A stretch of 19,507 nt of DNA. Origin: Lentibacillus juripiscarius JCM 12147. GTDB taxonomy: Bacteria; Bacillota; Bacilli; Bacillales_D; Amphibacillaceae. Positions 1-14,800 of the stretch are shown here, piece after piece (positions within the stretch are counted from its first letter, which is position 1; each line of letters begins with the position of its first letter). The translations under genes and the position numbers were made by a program. The stretch is from NCBI GenBank assembly GCA_001311805.1, contig BBCA01000051.1, positions 1 to 19,507 on the forward strand. The letters run 5' to 3'. The notes below the pieces were generated by a model, which saw only the letters and a list, made by a program, of their open reading frames with translations, ran no database searches and was not told where the DNA came from.

Positions 1-42
1 CGAAAAGCTTTTCACCAAATCAATGGATGAAAATCCCCTCTT

Positions 43-196
43 CTGCGAGGAGTGCCACTCCACTGAATGAACTTCCAACACGACGAGCACAAGCAATGCT
101 TCACCGAGTACGCTTCAACCTGCGAGGAGTGCTGCTTCACCGAAAAACTTCCAACACGACGAGCGCCAAGTATTCTGCCGGAGCGAATTCAAGTAC
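43..196. repeat. Diverged tandem repeat, period about 77 bp, in a non-coding left flank
   Basis: Two adjacent units begin with the same 13 bases (CTGCGAGGAGTGC at 43 and 120). They share a second exact block, AACTTCCAACACGACGAGC, ending near 88 and 164, and keep weaker similarity afterwards (CAAG...CGAG...TTCAA). Positions 1-280 hold no credible gene: the one open frame has no ribosome binding site and simply reads through the repeat. From memory, similar GC-rich intergenic repeats occur in other Bacillaceae, but I cannot verify a family name. Confidence 0.6.
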
Positions 197-280
197 TTAC
201 GAAAGAGATTTTTCAATATGTCGCAGTTTAGGTCAACTGCACTGGAAAACAACATCATTTGCGAAAACAGCCTTATGGAA

Positions 281-324: not shown

Positions 325-2003
325 TTACCACGTCTTGATTGGCGGTGATCCCGGAGGTCCATTCACGATAAAGTCAACAATCGGGATAACGTATGCCATG
401 GCAACCACCATCAGCATCAGGATAATCCAAAGACTCCAGCGTTCCGTCCATAGTGGTGTTGGCAGTGCGTCGTCTTCCGATTCACCGATTGGGAATTCTG
501 TTTCGCCTTTTGGTGCAAAGAACATCATATTAAATACAGCATATACCTGGATAATGACACCCAGCAGAAGCAATGTTGCACCAATTCCCATGACATATTC
601 GTACGGAATCCAGCTTAGTGCTGTTTCGTGATCACCATAAGTGGTGTAGGATGTCCGTCTTGGGTCACCCAAAAGACCAACCATGTGCTGTGAACCGGAC
701 ATCAATATCATTCCGACCGTCCATGTGATCGTCTGAATGATTCCCATTTGTTCATCTGCGGTGTCAATTTGCGTTTCGAGATGAACGGAACAAGCCAGTA
801 ACAAATACCGAAGAAAGTGAGTACAACTGATACACCAACGGTTATATGAAAGTGGCCGACAACCCAAAGTGTATTGTGAATGACCTGGTTAATCTGGTTA
901 CTTGTGTTAATCAGTCCGCCTGCACCGCCAGGAATGAATGCAATCATTGCAATCATTGGTGCCAGGAAGCGAACATCTCCCCAAGGCAATTTCTTAAACC
1001 ATCCGAACAATCCTTTTCCGCCATGTTTGCGTCCGGCACGCTCCAGAACAGCGAACATAGCGAATGCTGTCATCAGGGAAGGGAATGCGATGGATATACT
1101 CATGAACACGTGCAGAAATTTAACGGTTTCCGTAATTCCCGGGTCAATGATCTGGTGGTGAAATCCTCCCGGAATGTTCAGGATGACAAGCAGGATGACA
1201 ACAACCCTTGCCAGTTTATCGCTGAACAGCTTCCCGCCAACAATTTTCGGGATAGCAACATACCAGGCAGATGATGCGACAATGTACCAAATATTCACCA
1301 ATGTGTGACCGAAACTCCAGAACAATGTACGGCTCACCATGACATTGACTGTTTCTTTCCAGCCAAGTGACCAAGGGATAAGTGTAAGCACCTCATAGGT
1401 CACACCCAAACTTCCGAAAAACCAGAGTACGAATACTCCCATGGTGAAGAAAGCAAACAGCGGTGTTACTTGCCCTTTATGGTTTTTCCTCCAGTGGTTA
1501 TAGTTGATAAACACACCGAAACAGTTCGACCAGATTCCCAGTACAATGAATACCAGTCCAATATAGAACACAGGTGACGCTGCCATCGGTGGATAGAATG
1601 TATATAAGACAGATGCCTCATTTGCCAGGATAGTTGCGACAACCAGCACAACTCCTACTAGTATCAGACCAAATCCGGTCCAGGCCATCTTGCGGACTTT
1701 CGGAAGCAAACCGCCGATCGTATGCGCGAATCCGGAATATAAATAACCAATCGTAAATGCTGCCGTAAAAATTAAGATCAATAGAATCCCATGGGCCGTC
1801 AATACCTGATAGTAATTCAGCCATGCCGGCAATTCCATGAGCCCAGCCCGCTCGAGTCCCTGCAGTAAACCGAGAACCCCGCCGATAAGCAATGTAATAA
1901 AAGCGACTGACAAATAGGATTTCGTTATTCTGGCATCTTTCGGGTTCGGCCCAAAGACTTTTTTTGGGTCATCATAAATAATATCTTTTAGCGGCCTTGC
2001 CAT
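325..2003 (-). CDS. cbaA: B-family haem-copper oxidase subunit I, probable nitric oxide reductase (CuA-NOR/bNOR-like); one frameshift
   Basis: This is the large catalytic membrane subunit of a ba3-type (B-family) haem-copper enzyme, 559 residues once one frame break is repaired. The break is in the T run at 747-749: AACAAATGGG should read AACAAAATGGG, restoring Q-M-N-K-M-G-I-I-Q. The low-spin haem ligands are H71 and H386, the CuB ligands H233, H282 and H283, and the high-spin haem ligand H384. This numbering is almost identical to Thermus ba3 as I recall it. K-channel-like S309, T312 and Y248 are present. The key oddity is the CuB motif G-H-T-L-V-N-I-W-Y: position 237 is Asn where oxygen reductases have the Tyr cross-linked to the CuB histidine, and residue 244 is Ser, not Tyr. 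B-family NO reductases such as Bacillus azotoformans CuA-NOR lack this tyrosine, so NO reduction is inferred. The start ATG has AAAGGAG 7 nt upstream. It is the last gene of the operon. Confidence 0.88.
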
Positions 2004-2015
2004 ACTATCACTCCT

Positions 2016-2476
2016 TTACTTCACCGTAATCTCGGTGGACATCAGCTGATGCCCTGTCCCGCAGTATTCATTGCACAGAACTAGATAGTTGCCAGGCTCA
2101 TCAAATGAATGCGTGATTTTTGAATGTGCCCTGGCATCACCATCGCGTTTATGTTTGTTCCGGCAACCTGAAACCCGTGCGTTACATCCTTGGACGTCAT
2201 CGTAAACGTAACTTTCGCTCCAGCTGGCACTTCAATGTCACCAGGATTAAATGAGAATGCCTGGAGTGTCATGATAACTTCATATTCGTTCTCGCCTCGC
2301 TTGTAAACCCCGGGCTCATCAAATGGAGCTGTCTCATCAACCTTTTGCGGGTCAATCGTATCCATATTGCTCGGTGGTCCCATGCCGAGTGCAAATCCCT
2401 GATAACCAACGATAACCATGAAAATAACTAGAATACCGGCACTTAACGCTAGCCAAATTTCTTCCAGACGATGCAT
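2016..2476 (-). CDS. cbaB: Cytochrome c oxidase-type subunit II with CuA site; one frameshift
   Basis: Restored length is 153 residues. One N-terminal membrane anchor (about residues 8-30) is followed by a cupredoxin domain outside the membrane. The binuclear CuA ligands are complete after repair: H100, C135, E137, C139, H143 and M146 (C-N-E-Y-C-G-T-G-H-Q-L-M). The domain takes electrons from a c-type cytochrome and passes them to subunit I. The frame break is a lost base in the T5 run at 2117-2121. Without repair the protein would stop after the first His and lose the copper site. The stop codon is 12 bases before the subunit I start, so the two are translationally close. CuA is compatible with either a ba3 oxygen reductase or a CuA-type NO reductase, and does not decide between them. 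Confidence 0.88.
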
Positions 2477-2488
2477 ACCGTTCCCCCC

Positions 2489-2632
2489 TTAAACTCTTTC
2501 CATATAAAGCCAGAACACACCGGCCCACATGACGACGATAATAGCTGCAACGATCAGCACTGATGCAAATGTACCTCTCAAAGACTTTTCATCATTCTTA
2601 TTTTTTGGAGCACTCTGTTTTGAAGCTTCCAT
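2489..2632 (-). CDS. Cytochrome oxidase subunit 2A-like single-span membrane protein, 47 aa
   Basis: A 47-residue protein opens the operon. It has a charged, Lys-rich N-terminal stretch (about residues 1-19), then one hydrophobic helix (about 22-42) ending F-W-L-Y-M-E-R-V. This is the size and pattern of the small subunit IIA that accompanies ba3-type enzymes in Bacillaceae and Thermus, where it packs against subunits I and II. AGGAGG lies about 8 nt before the ATG. An ATG five bases upstream is in a different frame. The stop is 12 bases before the subunit II start, within the GGGGGG ribosome binding site region. No frame break is seen. Identification rests on length, topology and position rather than on catalytic motifs. 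Confidence 0.8.
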   Translation of the reverse strand: MEASKQSAPKNKNDEKSLRGTFASVLIVAAIIVVMWAGVFWLYMERV

Positions 2633-2857: not shown

Positions 2858-5800
2858 CTACATTTCCAGTTCGAGCTGTTTGGAAAAGAAATAAAGGTGT
2901 GCCGCCTTTACTGGCTTTTTCCAAATGCGCTCGAGCGCTTCTTTATAAAGGTTCATTTGTACGTCATACCGTTTGCGAAGTTTTTCCTTTGCCGTTTCTG
3001 CCACTTCTTCGGTCATCGTATCCGTTTTATAATCAAGAATGGCCCATCCGTCTTCCATTGGGATGACACAGTCAATCACACCCTGAATCAGCACTTGTTC
3101 CTCGGTATCATTTGTCCAGTCGGCATAGACTTCATTTGCCGGGAGAGTTAAGCTGAAAGGCACCTCCCGATAAACTTCTGCTGCATTTATTACCTTCTGC
3201 CCAATTGCTGTTGTGAAGAATTCGGAAATGGCATGCCCATCAATCGCGTCCGCTTCCTGCCGCGTGAGAAATTCCCCTTCAACCAGTGATTCCACAAACT
3301 CTGTGATCTGTTCAGGCTGGAGTGGCTGTTTTAATGGAATATGCTGCATCACCGTATGCATGGCCGTCCCTCGTTCTGCGGCGGTGATTTCTTTTGTTTT
3401 TGCATGAAAGCGGGCCGTCTGACGATTGGCGGCTGAAACTGGGCAATCAACTGGTCACTGCTGTATTCATCCTTTTGTTCACGTTGTCGTTTCAGCTCGG
3501 TGACCGTCTGTTTTGAACGGGATCTGGCCGCCTCTTCGTAAGGATAACGGTAAGACAGCCTGTTGGCTACTGCTTCCGTATAAGCATTTTCTTCCATGTC
3601 CAGCGGTTCCCAGTTCATGAGTTTTTCTCTCAGATGACTGTCCTCGTGTTCGGAGTCTTTCTCCAGATCCGTATAAGCACTTCCATGCGTGACCGTTACC
3701 TTCCATTGGGATGGGTCAACACGAATCTCCTCCAGCACTTTATCTGCAACATCTTCCGTTCTGAGTGCATCATTCATCTTGTGCCGGATTAATGCAGGTC
3801 CAACCCAGTCCAGGTATGATTTCGATTTTACACGGTAATGTGCCGGCAGGATCCAGTCGGCGTGATCAATCATCTGCTCCCATTTCTCTTGTTTTTGGTA
3901 AATGAGACGACACTTCCGACCATCAGCAGTTTCTCTTTCGCACGTGTCATGGCAACATACAACACACGCATTTCTTCCGCCAGCAATTCCCGCCGTTTTT
4001 CCTGTTTCATCGCATGATAGTACAGTGTCGGGTAGGTGATCCGTTTAACCGGGTCGATATATTTGCTGGCCATGCCAAGGTCCTTATGCAGCAAATACCG
4101 TTCATTCAGATCCTGCACATTAAAACTCCTTGTCCATCGCTCCAAGAATAACGACCGGAAATTCCAGCCCCTTGCTTTTATGAATCGTCATCATCCGGAC
4201 AACGTCTTCCTGTTCACTGAGGGCACGGGCAGCACCTAAGTCATCCCCGCGTTCTTCCATCCGTTCAATGAACCGCAAGAAGCGGAACAACCCACGGAAT
4301 GAGGTCGTTTCATACCCGCGCGCCCGGTCATATAGTGCTCTTAAATTAGCCTGGCGCTGCCGTCCTCCTGGCATGCCACCGACAAAATCATAGTAGCCTG
4401 TTTCTCTATAAATCTGCCAAATCAACTCTGAGAGTGCCCCCTGGCGTGATGCCAGACGGTAACGGGCAAGATTGTCGAGAAAACGATCGGCCTTCGTGGC
4501 TGTCTCATCCATGCTCTGCCGACAGAAGGCCTTTAATGCATCATAATAGGTTCCCCACCTGTTTGCCAGACGGATTCGGCCAAGGTCTTCCTCATTCATG
4601 CCGACAATCGGTGACTTCAGTACAGATGCGAGCGGAATGTCCTGTCTTGGGTTGTCGATCACTTTTAAAAAGTTCAGCATAACTTTTACTTCAATGGCGT
4701 CAAAATAACCGGTCGACAAATCGGCATAAACGGGTATCCCCTGTTTTTTCAGTTCATCCATAATGGTTGGTGCCCAATTCATGGAACGCATTAAAATGAC
4801 CATGTCACGATATTGGATATCCCGCTGGGCGTCAATCGTTTTATCATACACTTGCATGGGGGCATTACCGTTTTTTCCAATCCAGTCCTTTATCTTTTCC
4901 GCATATGCCCTAGCTTCCAGTTGAGCCTTTTCCAGATCCTGATAACTCTCTTCTTCAGGTGACATTTCTTCCGGTTCATCATTTGCTTCCCTGTCAATGA
5001 TAACAAGTTCAGGTTCCGGTTCGGCATGCGGAACGGCATCATACCTGTCATTACCATAAATCAATTCCGCATCCTCGTCATAGCTGATTTCACCAACATC
5101 CTCATCAAGAATCTGCCGGAAAACAAATTGTTCCAGTAAGTACTTCTTTCCGGCTGCGGAAATTGCTGGCGAGATCAATGCGTGCGGCAGGGCTGGCCGT
5201 ATCTGCAAAACGCTTATACTTGTCAATAAACAGCGATGGTTCCGCATGACGGAAACGGTAAATGCTCTGCTTCACATCGCCAACCATGAACATATTGCCT
5301 GGCCCGTCCTGGTCACTTATGAGCGATAGAATGGTCTCCTGGACAAGGTTGGTATCCTGGTATTCATCAACGAGCAGTTCTGTAAATTGCTCACGCAGGC
5401 TTACCGCCACATGAGAGGGCTTTACATGTCCAGGCCCTGATGCTTCGCCCGCCAAAAGCTGCAGGCAATAATGCTCCAAATCGGAAAAATCAACAATCGC
5501 CCGTTCCCGCTTCTGTTCACTAAAGCGGTACGTAAACTGTTTGACCAGTTCTGCCAGGTGCCTGATAACCGGTGCCAGTTCCTGCATGTCCGCCACATGA
5601 TTTTCCAGGTTGCGGCTGAACCATTTTTCTTTCATATCATTCCAGCGTTTTTTGTAGCGTTCACGCAGATTTTTCACTTTTTCTTTTTTCGTTTCATCAC
5701 AGTCGGCTTTTTTCCCGGATAAACGCTTAAACGAACTTGCGGCCATATATGCCTGCAGCTCATCCCACGAGTGGAGACGGGCACGCGCCTGCTCCAGATT

Positions 5801-6574
5801 GGAAAAGTCAGCTTCCACTGTATCGGCATAGTGATAGGGACCATCCGTTTCCCTCGTCACCTCCAGCGCCAACTGCATCTCCTGTTCGATGGCGTCCAGC
5901 TCACTTTTGATTTCTTTATAAATGATAGCCAGCCAGTCCAGATCTTCCTCCTGCCAATCATCCGGGATTTCATACGCACTGGCTAGCCCATCCAGCCATG
6001 ATTCAGGCCATGGATTCTGCATGGCAAAATCATACAATTTCAGGATGAGTTTTTCGACATCCGCATCACTTCGGTCACTGGAAAATCGGTCCACAACGGA
6101 AAAGAAACGCTGCTGTTCTTGTCCGTCTTTACCATACCACTCCTCAAATAAATCATCGATTACTTCCTGCTTGATCAGATCCGCCTCCGAATCATCCGCA
6201 ATCCGGAATGAAGGATCGATATCAAGCAGGTAAGCATACTGTTTCACTATATCAAGGCAAAAAGAATGCAATGTCGTGATAGACGCACGCTGCAGCATGG
6301 ACAGCTGCTTTTTCAGGTGAAGCGAGGCTGGGTTTTCCGCTAGTTTCGCTTCCAGTGCCTGCCCGACTCGGCTGCGCATCTCCTGTGCTGCCGCGTTCGT
6401 AAAGGTGACAACAAGCAGGGAATCGATATCAACGGGATCCTCCTGACGGGTCAATTTTTGAATGATACGTTCCACCAGTACGGCTGTTTTCCCTGATCCT
6501 GCGGCGGCAGCAACCAGAACATCCTTGCCATCTGTGTAAATCGCTTCTTCTTGTTTTCTCGTCCATCCAGCCAT
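2858..6574 (-). CDS. addA: AddA, helicase-nuclease subunit of AddAB; four frameshifts
   Basis: UvrD-like superfamily 1 helicase with a C-terminal RecB-type nuclease, partner of AddB. Together they resect double-strand ends until a Chi site and prepare the 3' strand for RecA. Restored length is about 1,240 residues, normal for the family. Visible motifs are Walker A A-A-A-A-G-S-G-K-T (about 22-30), Walker B V-D-E-Y-Q-D-T (about 401-407), motif III G-D-V-K-Q-S-I-Y-R-F-R, motif IV N-F-R-S-R-K-E-V-L, late helicase motifs T-I-H-K-S-K-G-L-E-F and V-A-M-T-R-A-K, and nuclease residues G-V-I-D...D-Y-K-T-D (about 1,180). Frame breaks lie at 5125-5129 (two bases lost or one gained), 4122-4125 (one T gained), 3892-3896 and 3392-3401 (one base lost each). 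Three ATGs stand in a row at 6580, 6577 and 6574. The GGGGG ribosome binding site is 1, 4 and 7 nt from them, which favours 6574. It overlaps or abuts the addB stop, indicating translational coupling. Confidence 0.93.
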
Positions 6575-6576
6575 CA

Positions 6577-9500
6577 TCATTCCCCCTTATGCTTAAGCGC
6601 GAGTTTTTCTAGGACTTCCTCGTCTTTCATGTCGGTCAGTTTCCGGTAGTTGTTCTCCTCAAGCGACGGGTCAAACTGGCAGACAGACAGAAATGGACAG
6701 TACGTGCACGGGACTCTCTGCTGATGCTGGTACGGATTCAGATGGACACCGCCTGATGTAATATCCAAACCTGCCTGGGACATGAGCTGGTGTATATGGT
6801 GCTGCAGGCCGGCAAATGAGTCATGGTCAGCGATTTTAGAGCCGCTGTAAAATCCGCCATTTTTCTTGACACCGGCGGGGACAATTTGACTTCTTCCCGA
6901 TTCAATAGATGTATCCATCAGTTTAACGATCTCTTCATCCGACAGCAGCAGCCCCTGCATTTTATATTTCTTGAACAATTCCTTTTCAATTTCATCATCG
7001 GTCATTTGTTTGCTGACCGACAGCAATGGATTGTGCACGTGAAAATAAAGCACCCCGGCCGGTTCTGCTTTCGCACCAAGCCACTGTTCCGACTGAGACA
7101 GGATAACATCCAGATACGTCAGCATCTGCAGCGCCAGCCCGTAATAGACTTCCAGCAGGCTCAGTTGCTGACTGCTCGATTTATAATCAATAATCCGCAA
7201 AAATAGCCCATCATCATTTTCCGCTTTATCCACACGGTCAATCCGCCCGCGCAGCATCAATTCAAAACCATTCGGCAATGACAGGGTAACCGGATCAAGT
7301 GTCTGTTTGTCACCGAAACCAAGTTCAAGTCCAACTGGTGTGAACGCACTCTGGCGGGCCTGCTCGCTCAAAATGTATGTGGCCCTGGTAATGACTTCCT
7401 GCAGTTTCTCCTGAATGTATTTGTAGCGGTTCGAGCTGTGCAGGATCTGGTGCTGCAGCGCAGGGGCCAGATTTTCGACAGCCTGACGCGCATAGCCCGC
7501 ACTGTCCGTTTTTGTCAGCTGGGCAAACTCCCTTCCCTCGGCCTGAATCCATTCGGTAATTTTTTCAGCGCCTCGTGGAAAAGCTGGCCGATATCAGGGG
7601 CATCCAGCTTATAGGTCTTCCTTTCCTGCAGGCTGAGGCTGTAGTTGGCAAAATGCTGATAGGAACAGCGATAATACGATTCCAGCCTGGACACACTCGC
7701 TTTCACCTGTTTCGGGTACAGCTGGTGTGCTGTATCCTTGGTCAGGTTTACTGGCCGGTTCTGATAATGCAGGCTTTGCAGTATGTTGTATGTTGTGCTG
7801 TGTTTCGGTTCATGCTGGATATACCAGTTCAGGACATGCCACCATACATCTCTCACCGGGTAGCCTTTTCGACTGCGGGCAAGCTGTGCTGTTAATGCTG
7901 CTCTTGTTTTGACCGGTGTCGTAATAAATCGTTCCGCATCAAACAGCTCGTCCGGATCCTGTAACAGCAAGTGTTCAGAACATGCTGGAAACAATTCTTC
8001 CATCCGGCTGATTAGCTGGGATGGCATTTTCGATTTTCCTTCTTCATCGCTTAGCGGGTAACTGACCCATAAGTAATCGCTGGCGGAAGTAAACGCTGCA
8101 TACATATAAAACCAGTCATCAAGAAGCTGGCGGCTGCTGCTTTCGGCCAGCTGCATTCCATGCTCTTCCAGCAGGCCGCGTTCCTGTTCATTGATGATTC
8201 CTTCCTCTGCCGGTTTCATCGGCCATGCACCATCATTCACCCCTAAAAGCAAGGAACACTTGACACCACTTATGCGTGAGCGGTCAATCGTACCAACAAT
8301 CACATGGTCAATGCTTGGCGGTACATGGGCGAATGTCAGCGAATCAAAGCCTGCCTCCACTGCTGACCGGAATGTTTTCAAATTCATCGTTTCCTCACCA
8401 GCCATTTCGACCATTTCATCAAACAGCTGAATGACCGCATTCCATACTTGTTCCTGTTCCCGTGCTTTTTCCAGTTCCCCTTCCTCGTCATACATCGCCT
8501 GCATCTGTTCCAGCCGTCCTGGTACATTCAGCCGCTCCAGCAGTAAATAAACAGCCTCACACTTATCCCGTACTGATTTCGCCTTGCGAATCTCCCGGTC
8601 AAACTGCTGCAGCGCCTGAACCACCTGGCTTCGATATGCATTCAATCGCTTCTGTGTTTCCTTTTCTGAATCGGTCTGAGCAGACTGATCAAAACCGCGA
8701 AACCGCTGAAAAATCCACTCTTCATCCCCAAGCCAGCGATCCCGGGACCGGATACCATATTCAAGTACATAGTTTTCCAGTTCATCAATGGCATCATCGT
8801 TCAATGGATAGCTCGGATCAACGGACGGAATAAAGCCTGTTTTCAGCACCCGGAAAACAGCATCATAGCGCCAGTTGCCCTCGGCCATCTCCAGAACTGA
8901 GCGGATTAGCTCAATTAACGAGTGGTTAAGCATAGTACGTTTCTCGTCAATAAAACCGGAATGCCATGGTCGCTGAAAATGGTTTCTATCAAATCATGGT
9001 AGACATCTGTCTGACGGATGAATACGGCTATATCACGAAAACGATAATGCTCTTCCCGCACAAGGCGCAGGATTTCCTGGGCAGCCCCTTCCACTTCCGC
9101 ACGCGGATGGACTGCTTCAGCCAGTTGAATCGGTGCCTCTCTTTCATAAGCAGGTGCAGGACGAACGTCGAAGTATTGCTCCAGATGGGCAAAATAAGGC
9201 CGGCTGCGCAGTCTGCCTTTATCAGGCTGAAATACCTCTGTAGCGTCAACAGGAATTCCATTTGCCTCAGCTGTTGCCTGCAGCATATGGTACGTTTCTT
9301 TCGTCTGATAGAATAAGTCCAGTTCCGAGAGGCGTTCCTCGTCCGGATCATCAGCTGTCAATGCCACAGTTACCGAGCGGCATTTTTTCATTAAAGCTTC
9401 CACAACGTGCAGTTCTTTCGGGGATAGACGGTGGAATCCGTCCATATAAATGGTTGCGTTTTTCCAGCATCGGGGCATCCTTTATTTTATCGGCAAGCAT

Positions 9501-11713: not shown

Positions 11714-12100
11714 ATGCGCTGTCTGAATGATGAGGAATTGCAGCTTGCTTCACGTTTTTGTTTCTTTCCATGGCGATAACGGTCATACAGCAGGATATCC
11801 AGCATATCGAGACTGGGACATTTAAAATAAAGGAACCTTATCTTGAACTGCTCGAAAGTATGAACGCCGAGGCAGCGAGTGAGCGCAAAGAATTGCGGAA
11901 AAAATGCGGGACAAAAAGATGCAAGTCGTTACACTGCAAAAAACGATTCATTCTCATCCTATCTATTCCTATGCAATGGCCGTGAAGAAAAGCGAAATTA
12001 TTTTAACCCGGCCATCCGCAAAAAAGTAAAAACGATTATGCAGGAACTCATGGATAAGGCTCAGCCACCACATCAGCATTATTCCTCTGCACATACTTAA
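11714..12100 (+). CDS. Small conserved Bacillaceae protein, YhjD-like; three frameshifts
   Basis: Restored length is 129 residues. Recognisable segments are L-S-M-A-I-T-V-I-Q-Q-D-I, F-K-I-K-E-P-Y-L-E-L-L-E, a charged heptad-like middle (E-R-K-E-L-R-K-K-M-R-D-K-K-M) and F-S-S-Y-L-F-L-C-N-G, then E-E-K-R-N-Y-F-N-P. I recall this pattern from the B. subtilis YhjD-type protein, which has no established biochemical role; the name is tentative. Three lost bases, in the T5 run at 11755-11759 and the A6 runs at 11899-11904 and 11938-11943, break it. Repairing all three gives one continuous helical protein. The start ATG 11714 has GGAGGGG 6 nt upstream. The last 17 codons run into the 3' end of comK on the other strand. 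Confidence 0.7.
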
Positions 12101-12569
12101 GCCGGTTGTCCAGCAGATACCTGTACTGGGCCGTCCGCTGCACCTGATTGAGCATCGAACCAAAGGAAACATCCAGAAGAATGGTTCTGCCATTCTTGAA
12201 AATGACCTCTGTCTGCCGGTAAGGGCCCTTATTCACCTGTTCAACATGAGAATGAGCAATCCATGAACATTTGGGGTTTGACGGTGACGCTGTAGGAAAG
12301 AAATACATGCCGCAGGATGGATCAATGGAGATGGGAGCCTTGTGCGTAATGCCGCAAATGCCGCGAGTGCCGTCTTGCCTGCCTTTCAGACTGGACCCGA
12401 AGAACTTGCACGCATCTTCAATAATTTTGCTGGGAGAATCACGTACCGTAAATGTTTCCTGTTCTTCCAGCACGATCGTTTTTGGAATTCCATTTTCACC
12501 GTGGTCTGCAACAACAGCCATCGTGAGAGGCGTAACTTCGTGTGCTAAAGCGTAAATATTATTTATCAT
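12048..12569 (-). CDS. comK: ComK, competence transcription factor, short C-terminus
   Basis: ComK is the master activator of late competence genes in Bacillus and binds AT-rich K-boxes. Conserved segments are C-K-F-F-G-S-S (after the Asp-rich N-terminal third), I-T-H-K-A-P-I-S-I-D-P-S, Y-F-F-P-T-A-S-P-S-N-P-K-C-S-W-I-A-H-S-H-V and F-K-N-G-R-T-I-L-L-D-V-S-F-G-S-M-L-N-Q-V-Q-R-T-A. The reading frame is intact: 173 residues from ATG 12569, where AAAGGA is 8 nt upstream. The ATG nine bases earlier overlaps that site and is unlikely. It ends about 16-20 residues before the end of B. subtilis ComK (192 aa as I recall), in A-E-P-Y-P, so it lacks most of the C-terminal tail. The 3' end overlaps the convergent YhjD-like gene by 53 bases. 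Confidence 0.88.
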   Translation of the reverse strand: MINNIYALAHEVTPLTMAVVADHGENGIPKTIVLEEQETFTVRDSPSKIIEDACKFFGSSLKGRQDGTRGICGITHKAPISIDPSCGMYFFPTASPSNPKCSWIAHSHVEQVNKGPYRQTEVIFKNGRTILLDVSFGSMLNQVQRTAQYRYLLDNRLKYVQRNNADVVAEPYP

Positions 12570-12608
12570 ACAATTCATCCTTTCATTTTACATGAAAAGA
12601 AAGAGGCA

Positions 12609-13261: not shown

Positions 13262-14800
13262 TTAGCTATGGTTTATCTGTTCGCGCAGTTTTTTCCGCAG
13301 CAGTTTACCGGTTGTGTTTTTCGGCAGTTCGTCCATAAATTCGATGGAGCTAGGCACTTTATAGCCCGCCAAATGGGCTTTACAGAATTCCAGAAGAGCC
13401 GCTTCATCCAGTTGAGGGTCAGATACGGCAACAAATGCAAGCACCGATTCCCCTGTCTCCGGGTGCGGCGTTCCGATGATAGCTGCCTCTGCCACTCCGG
13501 ATGGTCATAAAGAACTTCTTCCACTTCGCGCGGATAGACATTGTAGCCACCGACAAGAATCATGTCTTTTTTCCGATCCACGATGTAAAAATAGCCTTCA
13601 TCGTCCATCCGGGCCATGTCCCCGGTATGCAGCCAGCCATTTTTTAAGGCTGCAGCTGTTTCTTCTTCCAGTTTATAATACCCTTTCATCACGTTCGGTC
13701 CGCGGACAACCAGCTCGCCTACTTCCCCTGGCGGAACTTCTTCCCCGAATTCATCTACCACCTTGTTTTCCACATTCATGATACTGGTCCCGATTGAACC
13801 CGGTTTTCTTGGCCGATCCAGTGGGTTAAAGCATGTGACCGGTGACGCCTCCGATAACCCGTATCCTTCAGAAACGGTAACATCAAATGCCGCTTCAAAT
13901 TGTTTCAGCAATGACACAGGCATCGATGCCCCACCGGAAATGCAAAACCGAATATCGGACAAATCTTCGCCGTTCTGTCCACTCGCCTGCAGAAGATAAT
14001 TGTACATTGTCGGAACCCCGGCAAAGATCGTTGCACCCTGCTCCTTTGCTATGCGGAAAACCTCCTGCGGGGAAAATTTCGGCATAATCATGACAGTACC
14101 GCCATTCATCAGCGGGGCATTCAAAGCAACGGTCAGACAAAAACATGAAACATCGGAAGTGCAGCAATCACCCGGTCATCGCCGCCAATAGTCAAATAAT
14201 CGGCAGTATCTTTGGCATTCGAGTAGATATTTTGTGGGTTAGCATGGCACCCTTGGGTTTCCCGGTCGTTCCGGACGTATACAAAACAATGGCTGTCTCG
14301 CCATCTGCTATTACCGGTTGTTCAAACCCCAGACTCCCCTCCTCGACCAATTTGGAAAAAGAATACAGCTTTTCATGAAGCGGGCTATCCACAAATGAAC
14401 TGTTGGCACCGCTTTCACAGCATATGTAATGCTCTATACCAGGTAGCTGACCGCTGATTGCTTCAAATTTTTCGAGCAGAACGTCCATGGTGATAATTCC
14501 TTTCACATCCCCATTTTTGAGAATATACTCCAGCTCGCTTGCTGTGTACTGCGGATTAATTGGGACTGCCACGGCCCCCAGCCTCAATGCGCCATACAAA
14601 CCGATGACGTAATAGGGGCTGTTGCCGACAGCAAGTGCAATATGATCACCCTTTTTGTACCCGAGCTGCTGCAGGCGGGATGCGAATTTCGTAACAGCTC
14701 TGTCCAGTTCCGTGTAACTCGTTTCCTCGTCATTGAACACATACGCCGTTTTGCCAGGGTTATTCCTGGCGGTAATGGCCAATTGTTCTGTAATATTCAC
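13262..14800 (-). CDS. lcfB: Long-chain fatty-acid-CoA ligase LcfB; three frameshifts
   Basis: ANL-superfamily enzyme that activates a fatty acid with ATP and CoA before beta-oxidation. Restored length is 513 residues, the size of B. subtilis LcfB (YhfL). Motifs in order are the P-loop [11 protein letters not shown] (about 165), [23 protein letters not shown], the hinge V-D-R-K-K-D-M-I, and the C-terminal catalytic lysine in [10 protein letters not shown]. Lost bases lie at 14230-14233 (A/T run), 14139-14143 (A/T run) and about 13495 (GG read as G; the only clear non-A/T site). The start is GTG 14800 with AGGAGG 7 nt upstream. It has its own promoter with a FadR operator in the leader and ends at a strong hairpin, so it is monocistronic. 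Confidence 0.92.

What the first reader, a model, noticed from the sequence alone, without database searches (positions are those of the whole stretch)
1293..1307. Active-site tyrosine replaced by asparagine in the haem-copper subunit I: probable NO reductase, not an oxygen reductase
Seen: H233 and N237 in the motif G-H-T-L-V-N-I-W-Y, with H71, H282, H283, H384 and H386 all kept at positions equivalent to Thermus ba3. Known: oxygen-reducing haem-copper enzymes need the Tyr four residues after the CuB histidine, cross-linked to it; the NO reductases lack it. The B-family CuA-NOR of Bacillus azotoformans is a precedent for a CuA-containing NO reductase built on this scaffold. I do not recall with certainty which residue replaces Tyr there. 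The whole motif diverges (no H-P-x-V-Y), so a single base error does not explain it. The gene would usually be auto-annotated as cytochrome c oxidase subunit 1.
Basis: partly seen in the sequence, partly recalled or inferred. Interest (0 to 1): 0.85.

Follow-up and report, generated by a model that had tools for sequence, protein, structure and literature searches.

The report
Nitric oxide reductase resembling an oxidase
A gene that software would label as an oxygen-using respiratory enzyme is almost certainly a known kind of nitric oxide reductase of Bacillus relatives, recognisable by one swapped active-site residue, so it is a new member of a described family rather than something new.

Summary
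In detail: on the minus strand H233 (1305-1307) and N237 (1293-1295) stand in GHTLVNIWY of a B-family haem-copper subunit I with all six histidine ligands kept. The window protein is 64% identical to that gene (L038) and falls in a clade of 40 sequences, all Asn, beside 50 distinct Bacillota Tyr-type relatives. Its operon holds IIa, CuA subunit II and subunit I; both large genes carry a frame change, probably sequencing error. Three additions. Asn237 comes with Leu240 to Tyr (40 of 40) and loss of Tyr244; distant type II NORs have Asn with a Tyr one residue further on. SCO1 and a second gene follow bNOR in 37 and 36 of 39 relatives but not in the window, which ends in a dispersed repeat. In a draw of 150 genomes, 14 of 21 bNOR carriers lack NarG, NirK and NirS. 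New member of a known kind.

The parts
2492..2632 (-). Small one-helix subunit IIa (47 codons), first gene of the operon
   Evidence: Pfam PF08113 CoxIIa, 27.5 bits against a cut-off of 20.7; counterparts in L001-L003
2081..2476 (-). CuA subunit II, N-terminal part; E5 (2462-2464) corresponds to the K-path entry Glu of Thermus subunit II
   Evidence: 86 bits to Thermus ba3 subunit II; 86% identical to L001 up to the frame change near 2117-2120; E5 in 39 of 39 relatives
2019..2120 (-). Subunit II, C-terminal part in another frame, with CuA motif CNEYCGTGHQLM
   Evidence: third frame; 91% identical to L001 residues 124-157
708..2003 (-). Subunit I, residues 1 to about 420, with all six histidine ligands; homology in this frame ends near 747-753
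   Evidence: PF00115, 244 bits; 85% identical to L001; ligands
325..753 (-). Subunit I, C-terminal part in another frame
   Evidence: 85% identical to L001 residues 422-563
1293..1307 (-). H233-T-L-V-N237: CuB histidine and the Asn that replaces the cross-linked Tyr
1284..1286 (-). Y240, clade-specific tyrosine one helical turn below N237
   Evidence: 40 of 40 in the Asn clade, 0 of 53 Tyr-type rows
1260..1274 (-). S244 (Tyr in oxidases, lost here) to Y248 (K-path Tyr, kept)
1068..1079 (-). S309 to T312, K-path analogue residues, kept
   Evidence: S309 and T312 each 40 of 40 in the Asn clade; K-path assignment recalled
38..240 (+). Dispersed intergenic repeat, where the SCO1 and membrane genes stand in relatives
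   Evidence: matches in 5 of 8 genomes searched, 34 of them in L. persicus; the downstream genes of L001 give no match in the window

Best explanation
This is the operon of a bNOR (formerly qCuANOR), a B-family haem-copper nitric oxide reductase, in a Bacillaceae bacterium close to Lentibacillus and Virgibacillus. Electrons from cytochrome c enter CuA in subunit II, pass to the low-spin haem b and reach the high-spin haem and CuB site of subunit I, where two NO are joined to N2O and water. (PMC3475470 also names quinol as donor; I recall that a later study withdrew this.) Protons come from the cytoplasm along the K-path analogue (E5 of subunit II, T312, S309, Y248, then Y240 and N237). Without the Tyr cross-linked to H233 the site lacks the donor that helps split O2. 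Shown here: the residues, the operon and the clade membership. Taken from papers: two haems b, CuA, NO reduction and electrogenicity of the B. azotoformans enzyme. Inferred: all function of the window's own protein, and the roles of Y240 and N237.
For: The Asn clade (window and L001-L039) is 40 of 40 Asn and one side of a branch with the helix VI columns left out: SH-aLRT 99 on 96 rows; bootstrap 99 and SH-aLRT 99 on 43 rows. L038 is S. azotoformans LMG 9581 contig42; its subunit II reads MHKSEKIWLTLSFGMIMGFM, the N-terminus of the purified NO reductase as quoted in PMC3475470, which reports Tyr to Asn in its subunit I. All six histidines are kept in 94 of 94 rows. The CuA motif is in 39 of 39 Asn-clade loci (also 41 of 41 Tyr loci) and in a window piece. 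SCO1 and a second gene follow in 37 and 36 of 39 Asn loci and 0 of 41 Tyr loci. narG lies within 10 kb of bNOR in 7 of 26 bNOR genomes, and a NirK-like gene in G016 at least (coordinates). By score class, 25 of 26 of these genomes have a second B-family subunit I; the 9 that I looked at, from 8 genomes, have Tyr. PMC8756737 Table A4 lists CuANor as N with one proton channel.
Against: No activity is measured for this protein; the only member whose activity I met in the passages read is the B. azotoformans enzyme. Both subunit genes are frame-changed in the window. The SCO1 and membrane genes are not seen. In the draw of 150, 14 of 21 bNOR carriers have no NarG, NirK or NirS match, and co-occurrence is weak: NirK 4 of 21 against 6 of 129, p 0.034 (p 0.10 without the centre genome G001); NarG 6 of 21 against 19 of 129, p 0.11. 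A denitrification role in this host is not shown. No whole genome is held for the window. The tree carried a warning that the long Thermus branch meets the Asn clade.
Confidence: 0.93

Rival explanations
1. It is an oxygen reductase of the ba3/bo3 kind that does without the cross-linked Tyr, or uses Y240 in its place.
For: 49-55% identity to Tyr-type relatives, K-path residues kept, and a new invariant Tyr240 on the same helix.
Against: The clade holds the gene of a purified NO reductase. By score class 25 of 26 bNOR genomes carry a separate B-family paralogue, and all 26 an A-family-like match above 500 bits; the 9 B-family paralogues looked at have Tyr. Y240 is seven residues from H233, about two turns, too far for the His-Tyr bond (geometry inferred).
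Confidence: 0.04
2. It is a bNOR that serves NO detoxification, not denitrification.
For: 14 of 21 bNOR carriers in the draw of 150 lack NarG, NirK and NirS. PMC11388526 mentions aerobic NO reduction in microoxic settings as a proposal (passage).
Against: Of 26 genomes picked by similarity, 20 have NarG and 13 a NirK-like match below the curated cut-off. The nearest relative G001 has both. narG stands within 10 kb of bNOR in 7 of 26. NapA and other NO sources were not searched, and NirS only in the draw of 150.
Confidence: 0.35
3. The gene is a decaying pseudogene in this strain.
For: Frame changes in subunit I and subunit II.
Against: addA and addB in the same window also change frame (two and at least one), which suggests sequencing error. 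The active-site residues are intact, and identity to L001-L003 is 79-91% on both sides of the frame changes.
Confidence: 0.08
4. It belongs to the type II (sNOR-like) NORs rather than bNOR.
For: The same Asn four residues after the CuB His.
Against: 22-26% identity to type II over partial alignments against 64% to the B. azotoformans bNOR. The Tyr stands at H+7 here, at H+8 in type II.
Confidence: 0.01

Closest known systems
bNOR / qCuANOR type I of Schinkia (Bacillus) azotoformans, BAZO_06394-06399 (PMC3475470)
   Same: Subunit I with Asn for Tyr, CuA subunit II, small membrane peptide, same gene order; 64% identity over residues 11-424 of subunit I
   Different: In the window the SCO1 and six-helix genes are not seen; the contig ends in a repeat. 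The window's small peptide passes the CoxIIa cut-off, the B. azotoformans one has no Pfam match
ba3 oxidase of Thermus thermophilus and bo3-type oxidases of Bacillaceae
   Same: B-family fold, six histidines, CuA, S309, T312, Y248, E5 of subunit II
   Different: Thirteen columns differ between the Asn rows and the Bacillota Tyr rows, among them Y237N, L240Y and P234T; Tyr244 is also lost
qCuANOR type II / sNOR-like enzyme of Bacillaceae (BAZO_04705 kind)
   Same: Asn at H+4, and a Tyr one turn further on (120 of 120 listed)
   Different: Tyr at H+8 instead of H+7; about 490 residues; 22-26% identity over partial alignments
eNOR
   Same: NO reductase with a cupredoxin subunit II, related to B-family oxidases (PMC11388526, PMC8756737, passages)
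   Different: Gln at the Tyr position according to PMC8756737 Table A4

Membership tests
bNOR (CuANOR) | B-family haem-copper subunit I with six histidine ligands | tested here: met
bNOR (CuANOR) | Asn in place of the cross-linked Tyr | tested here: met
   N237; 40 of 40 in the clade; same in BAZO_06399 (PMC3475470)
bNOR (CuANOR) | Same clade as the purified B. azotoformans enzyme | tested here: met
   support 99
bNOR (CuANOR) | CuA-binding subunit II in the same operon | tested here: met
   the motif lies in a piece read in another frame
bNOR (CuANOR) | Small membrane peptide gene beside subunit II | tested here: met
   2492-2632, PF08113
bNOR (CuANOR) | SCO1/SenC and six-helix genes downstream | tested here: inconclusive
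   present in 37 and 36 of 39 relatives, no match in the window, whose first bases hold a repeat before the contig ends
bNOR (CuANOR) | NO reductase activity, two haems b | not testable with these tools
   needs the protein
ba3/bo3 oxygen reductase | Tyr four residues after the CuB His | tested here: not met
   50 distinct Bacillota Tyr-type genes and Thermus have it
ba3/bo3 oxygen reductase | Placement among Tyr-type sequences | tested here: not met
type II / sNOR-like NOR | Close sequence relation, Tyr at H+8 | tested here: not met
eNOR | Gln at the Tyr position | tested here: not met
   Asn here; criterion from PMC8756737 Table A4

The most novel reading that the evidence does not exclude
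In Asn-type NO reductases the active-site tyrosine is not simply lost but moved about one helical turn down helix VI, to H+7 in bNOR and H+8 in type II. There it cannot cross-link to the CuB histidine but can still relay protons (and perhaps an electron) through the Asn. Asn plus lowered Tyr would then be a functional unit that turns an O2 reductase into an electrogenic NO reductase, possibly evolved twice.
Probability: 0.3. Interest if true: 0.6.

Novelty: new member of a known kind. Interest (0 to 1): 0.33.

Why it matters
Where the sources give a name for a listed relative, the part shown is that of a cytochrome c oxidase subunit or of a cytochrome; I saw none named nitric oxide reductase. 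NO reduction, and with it N2O release, is thus easily missed in Bacillota; PMC11388526 makes this point for KEGG, eggNOG and TIGRfam. The added observation that Asn237 and Tyr240 come together in every clade member examined gives a two-residue marker for naming these genes and a concrete mutational question: how an oxygen reductase becomes an NO reductase that still takes protons from the cytoplasm.

Tried and rejected
Single base error at N237: rejected, since the whole clade shares it. A tyrosine brought in from another helix: among Tyr kept in 36 or more of 40 Asn-clade rows within residues 1-424, only Y87 (far from the site by inference) and Y240 are rarely Tyr in the Tyr-type rows (2 and 0 of 53); Y89 is mixed. 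The part of subunit I beyond the frame change was not included. Two independent origins of Asn: the best tree keeps bNOR and type II apart, but forcing them into one clade costs only 5.75 log units, p-AU 0.156, so convergence is not shown. Denitrification as the sure role: weak association only. A possible second bNOR in G014 turned out to be Tyr-type (L137, GHALVYF). Structure prediction was not run, since its description offers no coordinates with which to measure Tyr240 to CuB. Literature: one search gave one paper; in the titles and abstract starts listed I saw no mention of a conserved lower Tyr, and I read only passages of four papers (PMC11388526, PMC3475470, PMC5826923, PMC8756737), so it may well be in print elsewhere. 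Hemp and Gennis 2008, Al-Attar and de Vries 2015 and Murali and others 2024 are known to me by recall or as citations only; a DOI that I tried from memory was not held.

Full report
What is there. On the minus strand lie, in order, a 47-codon one-helix peptide (2492-2632, CoxIIa), a CuA subunit II (from 2476) and a haem-copper subunit I (from 2003). Subunit I matches Thermus ba3 with 309 bits at best. All six histidine ligands align.

State of the genes. Against L001-L003, where they are single frames, subunit I changes frame near 747-753 and subunit II near 2117-2120; addA changes frame twice, and addB once in the part that L001 and L002 cover. Such a spread over unrelated genes points to sequencing error, but only resequencing can show it. 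The CuA motif CNEYCGTGHQLM is in the second piece of subunit II.

Relatives. The one genome scan gave 80 loci (190 stretches confirmed, best 80 kept). Identity is 62-85% for L001-L039 and at most 55% for L040-L080. I aligned 94 rows: the window, Thermus, these 80, eight B-family genes fetched from seven bNOR genomes, and four from other genomes (three of the four being second fetches of L040, L041 and L043). The split is complete: window plus L001-L039, 40 of 40 Asn; the other 53 Bacillota rows (50 distinct genes) and Thermus, Tyr. All 120 listed closest proteins, the window's own among them, match GHxx[VI]NxWY. In a tree without the helix VI columns the Asn rows are one side of a branch, SH-aLRT 99, with one change (96 rows; the tool warned that the long Thermus branch meets this clade). 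On 43 rows with A-family rows added support is 99/99, without that warning. The window pairs with Lentibacillus persicus.

Link to a purified enzyme. L038 is S. azotoformans LMG 9581 contig42. [quoted passage not shown] The same passages say that Tyr223 in that paper's Thermus numbering is Asn in BAZO_06399, and describe a second, shorter type II with Asn. PMC8756737 Table A4 gives N and one proton channel for CuANor (passages). PMC5826923 reports from others that the B. azotoformans enzyme is electrogenic and that a K-pathway analogue is the possible route (passages). PMC11388526 calls it bNOR and counts it in 123 of 433 Bacillota genomes that have NOR and/or Nos (passages). The finding is therefore a new member of a published family.

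Coordinated switch. Thirteen columns pass my filter for a switch between the Asn rows and the 53 Bacillota Tyr rows. Beside Y237N they include L240Y (40 of 40 against 0 of 53) and P234T (39 of 40). Tyr244, 53 of 53 in the Tyr rows, is V 26, I 8, T 4, S 1 (the four commonest shown) in the Asn rows. S309, T312 and Y248 are kept in 40 of 40 Asn rows, and E5 of subunit II in 39 of 39 relatives. In the listed proteins of three searches, (H+4, H+7, H+8) is N, Y, then L, I or F in 119 of 120 bNOR (the one the script missed, P0057, matches), N, I, Y in 120 of 120 type II, and Y, L, then L or M in 120 of 120 bo3 type. The seven A-family rows that I aligned have Tyr at H+4, I or V at H+7 and L at H+8. 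The lists are the best 120 of each search, so they lean to close relatives. Convergence is not proven: p-AU 0.156 for one clade of bNOR and type II. I read the pair as a proton-relay rearrangement; that is inference.

Operon and context. SCO1/SenC and a gene without a Pfam match, in the place of the six-helix gene of PMC3475470, are found in 37 and 36 of 39 Asn loci and 0 of 41 Tyr loci (absence is within the DNA held for each locus). The window shows neither. Its first bases (38-240) belong to a dispersed repeat with 34 matches in L. persicus, a likely reason for the contig end. addA lies upstream also in L001-L003, L009, L013, L015 and L018.

Physiology. Of 26 genomes with an Asn-clade locus, picked from the best hits, 20 have NarG over the cut-off, 13 a NirK-like match of 184-204 bits (all below the curated cut-off of 296.3; one with a stop inside), and 7 NosZ over the cut-off (tallied); NirS was searched only in the draw below. 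narG is within 10 kb of bNOR in 7 of 26. In a draw of 150 genomes of the order (which contains the centre genome G001, and G006), 21 have a match of 65% identity or more to a bNOR, the next being 54% (Asn not checked one by one except in G001 and G006). Of these 4 have NirK, 0 NirS, 6 NarG; 14 have none of the three. NirK 4 of 21 against 6 of 129 gives p 0.034, and p 0.10 without G001; NarG p 0.11. Many bNORs thus stand without these partners, which fits NO scavenging or an NO source that I did not search.

Verdict. Observation confirmed, interpretation supported, kind already known. The paired Asn-Tyr switch and the carriers without nitrate and nitrite reductase are the parts worth a specialist's look.

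Noticed in passing
window 38-240: Dispersed repeat (two imperfect units about 77 bases apart). Matches: 34 in L. persicus G001 (40 of 48 candidates scored), 13 in Oceanobacillus senegalensis G007, 8 in G002, 2 in G006, 40 short ones in G004 (cap reached), none in G003, G013, G025.
   Followed up: partly
window 2861-6565 and 6580-7895: addA changes frame twice and addB at least once against intact relatives; the acyl-CoA synthetase-like region 13273-14800 also appears as separate ORFs (name by eye).
   Followed up: partly
L130 (G001:C7:180200-182400): The type II NOR gene of Lentibacillus persicus, beside its NirK-like gene, looks broken: a 401-residue frame, and a separate weak N-terminal match with two stops inside.
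   Followed up: no
L113, L125-L128, L130: Type II NORs carry GHIFAN(S/A)xIYM: Asn at H+4 and Tyr at H+8; in G001 and G002 the gene lies within 2 kb of a NirK-like gene.
   Followed up: partly
G003:C4:8028-11063: In Lentibacillus populi the NirK-like gene lies about 0.9 kb beyond a Tyr-type B-family oxidase gene (L116), not beside a NOR.
   Followed up: no
window 12048-12578: ComK competence regulator gene (PF06338, 181 bits).
   Followed up: no
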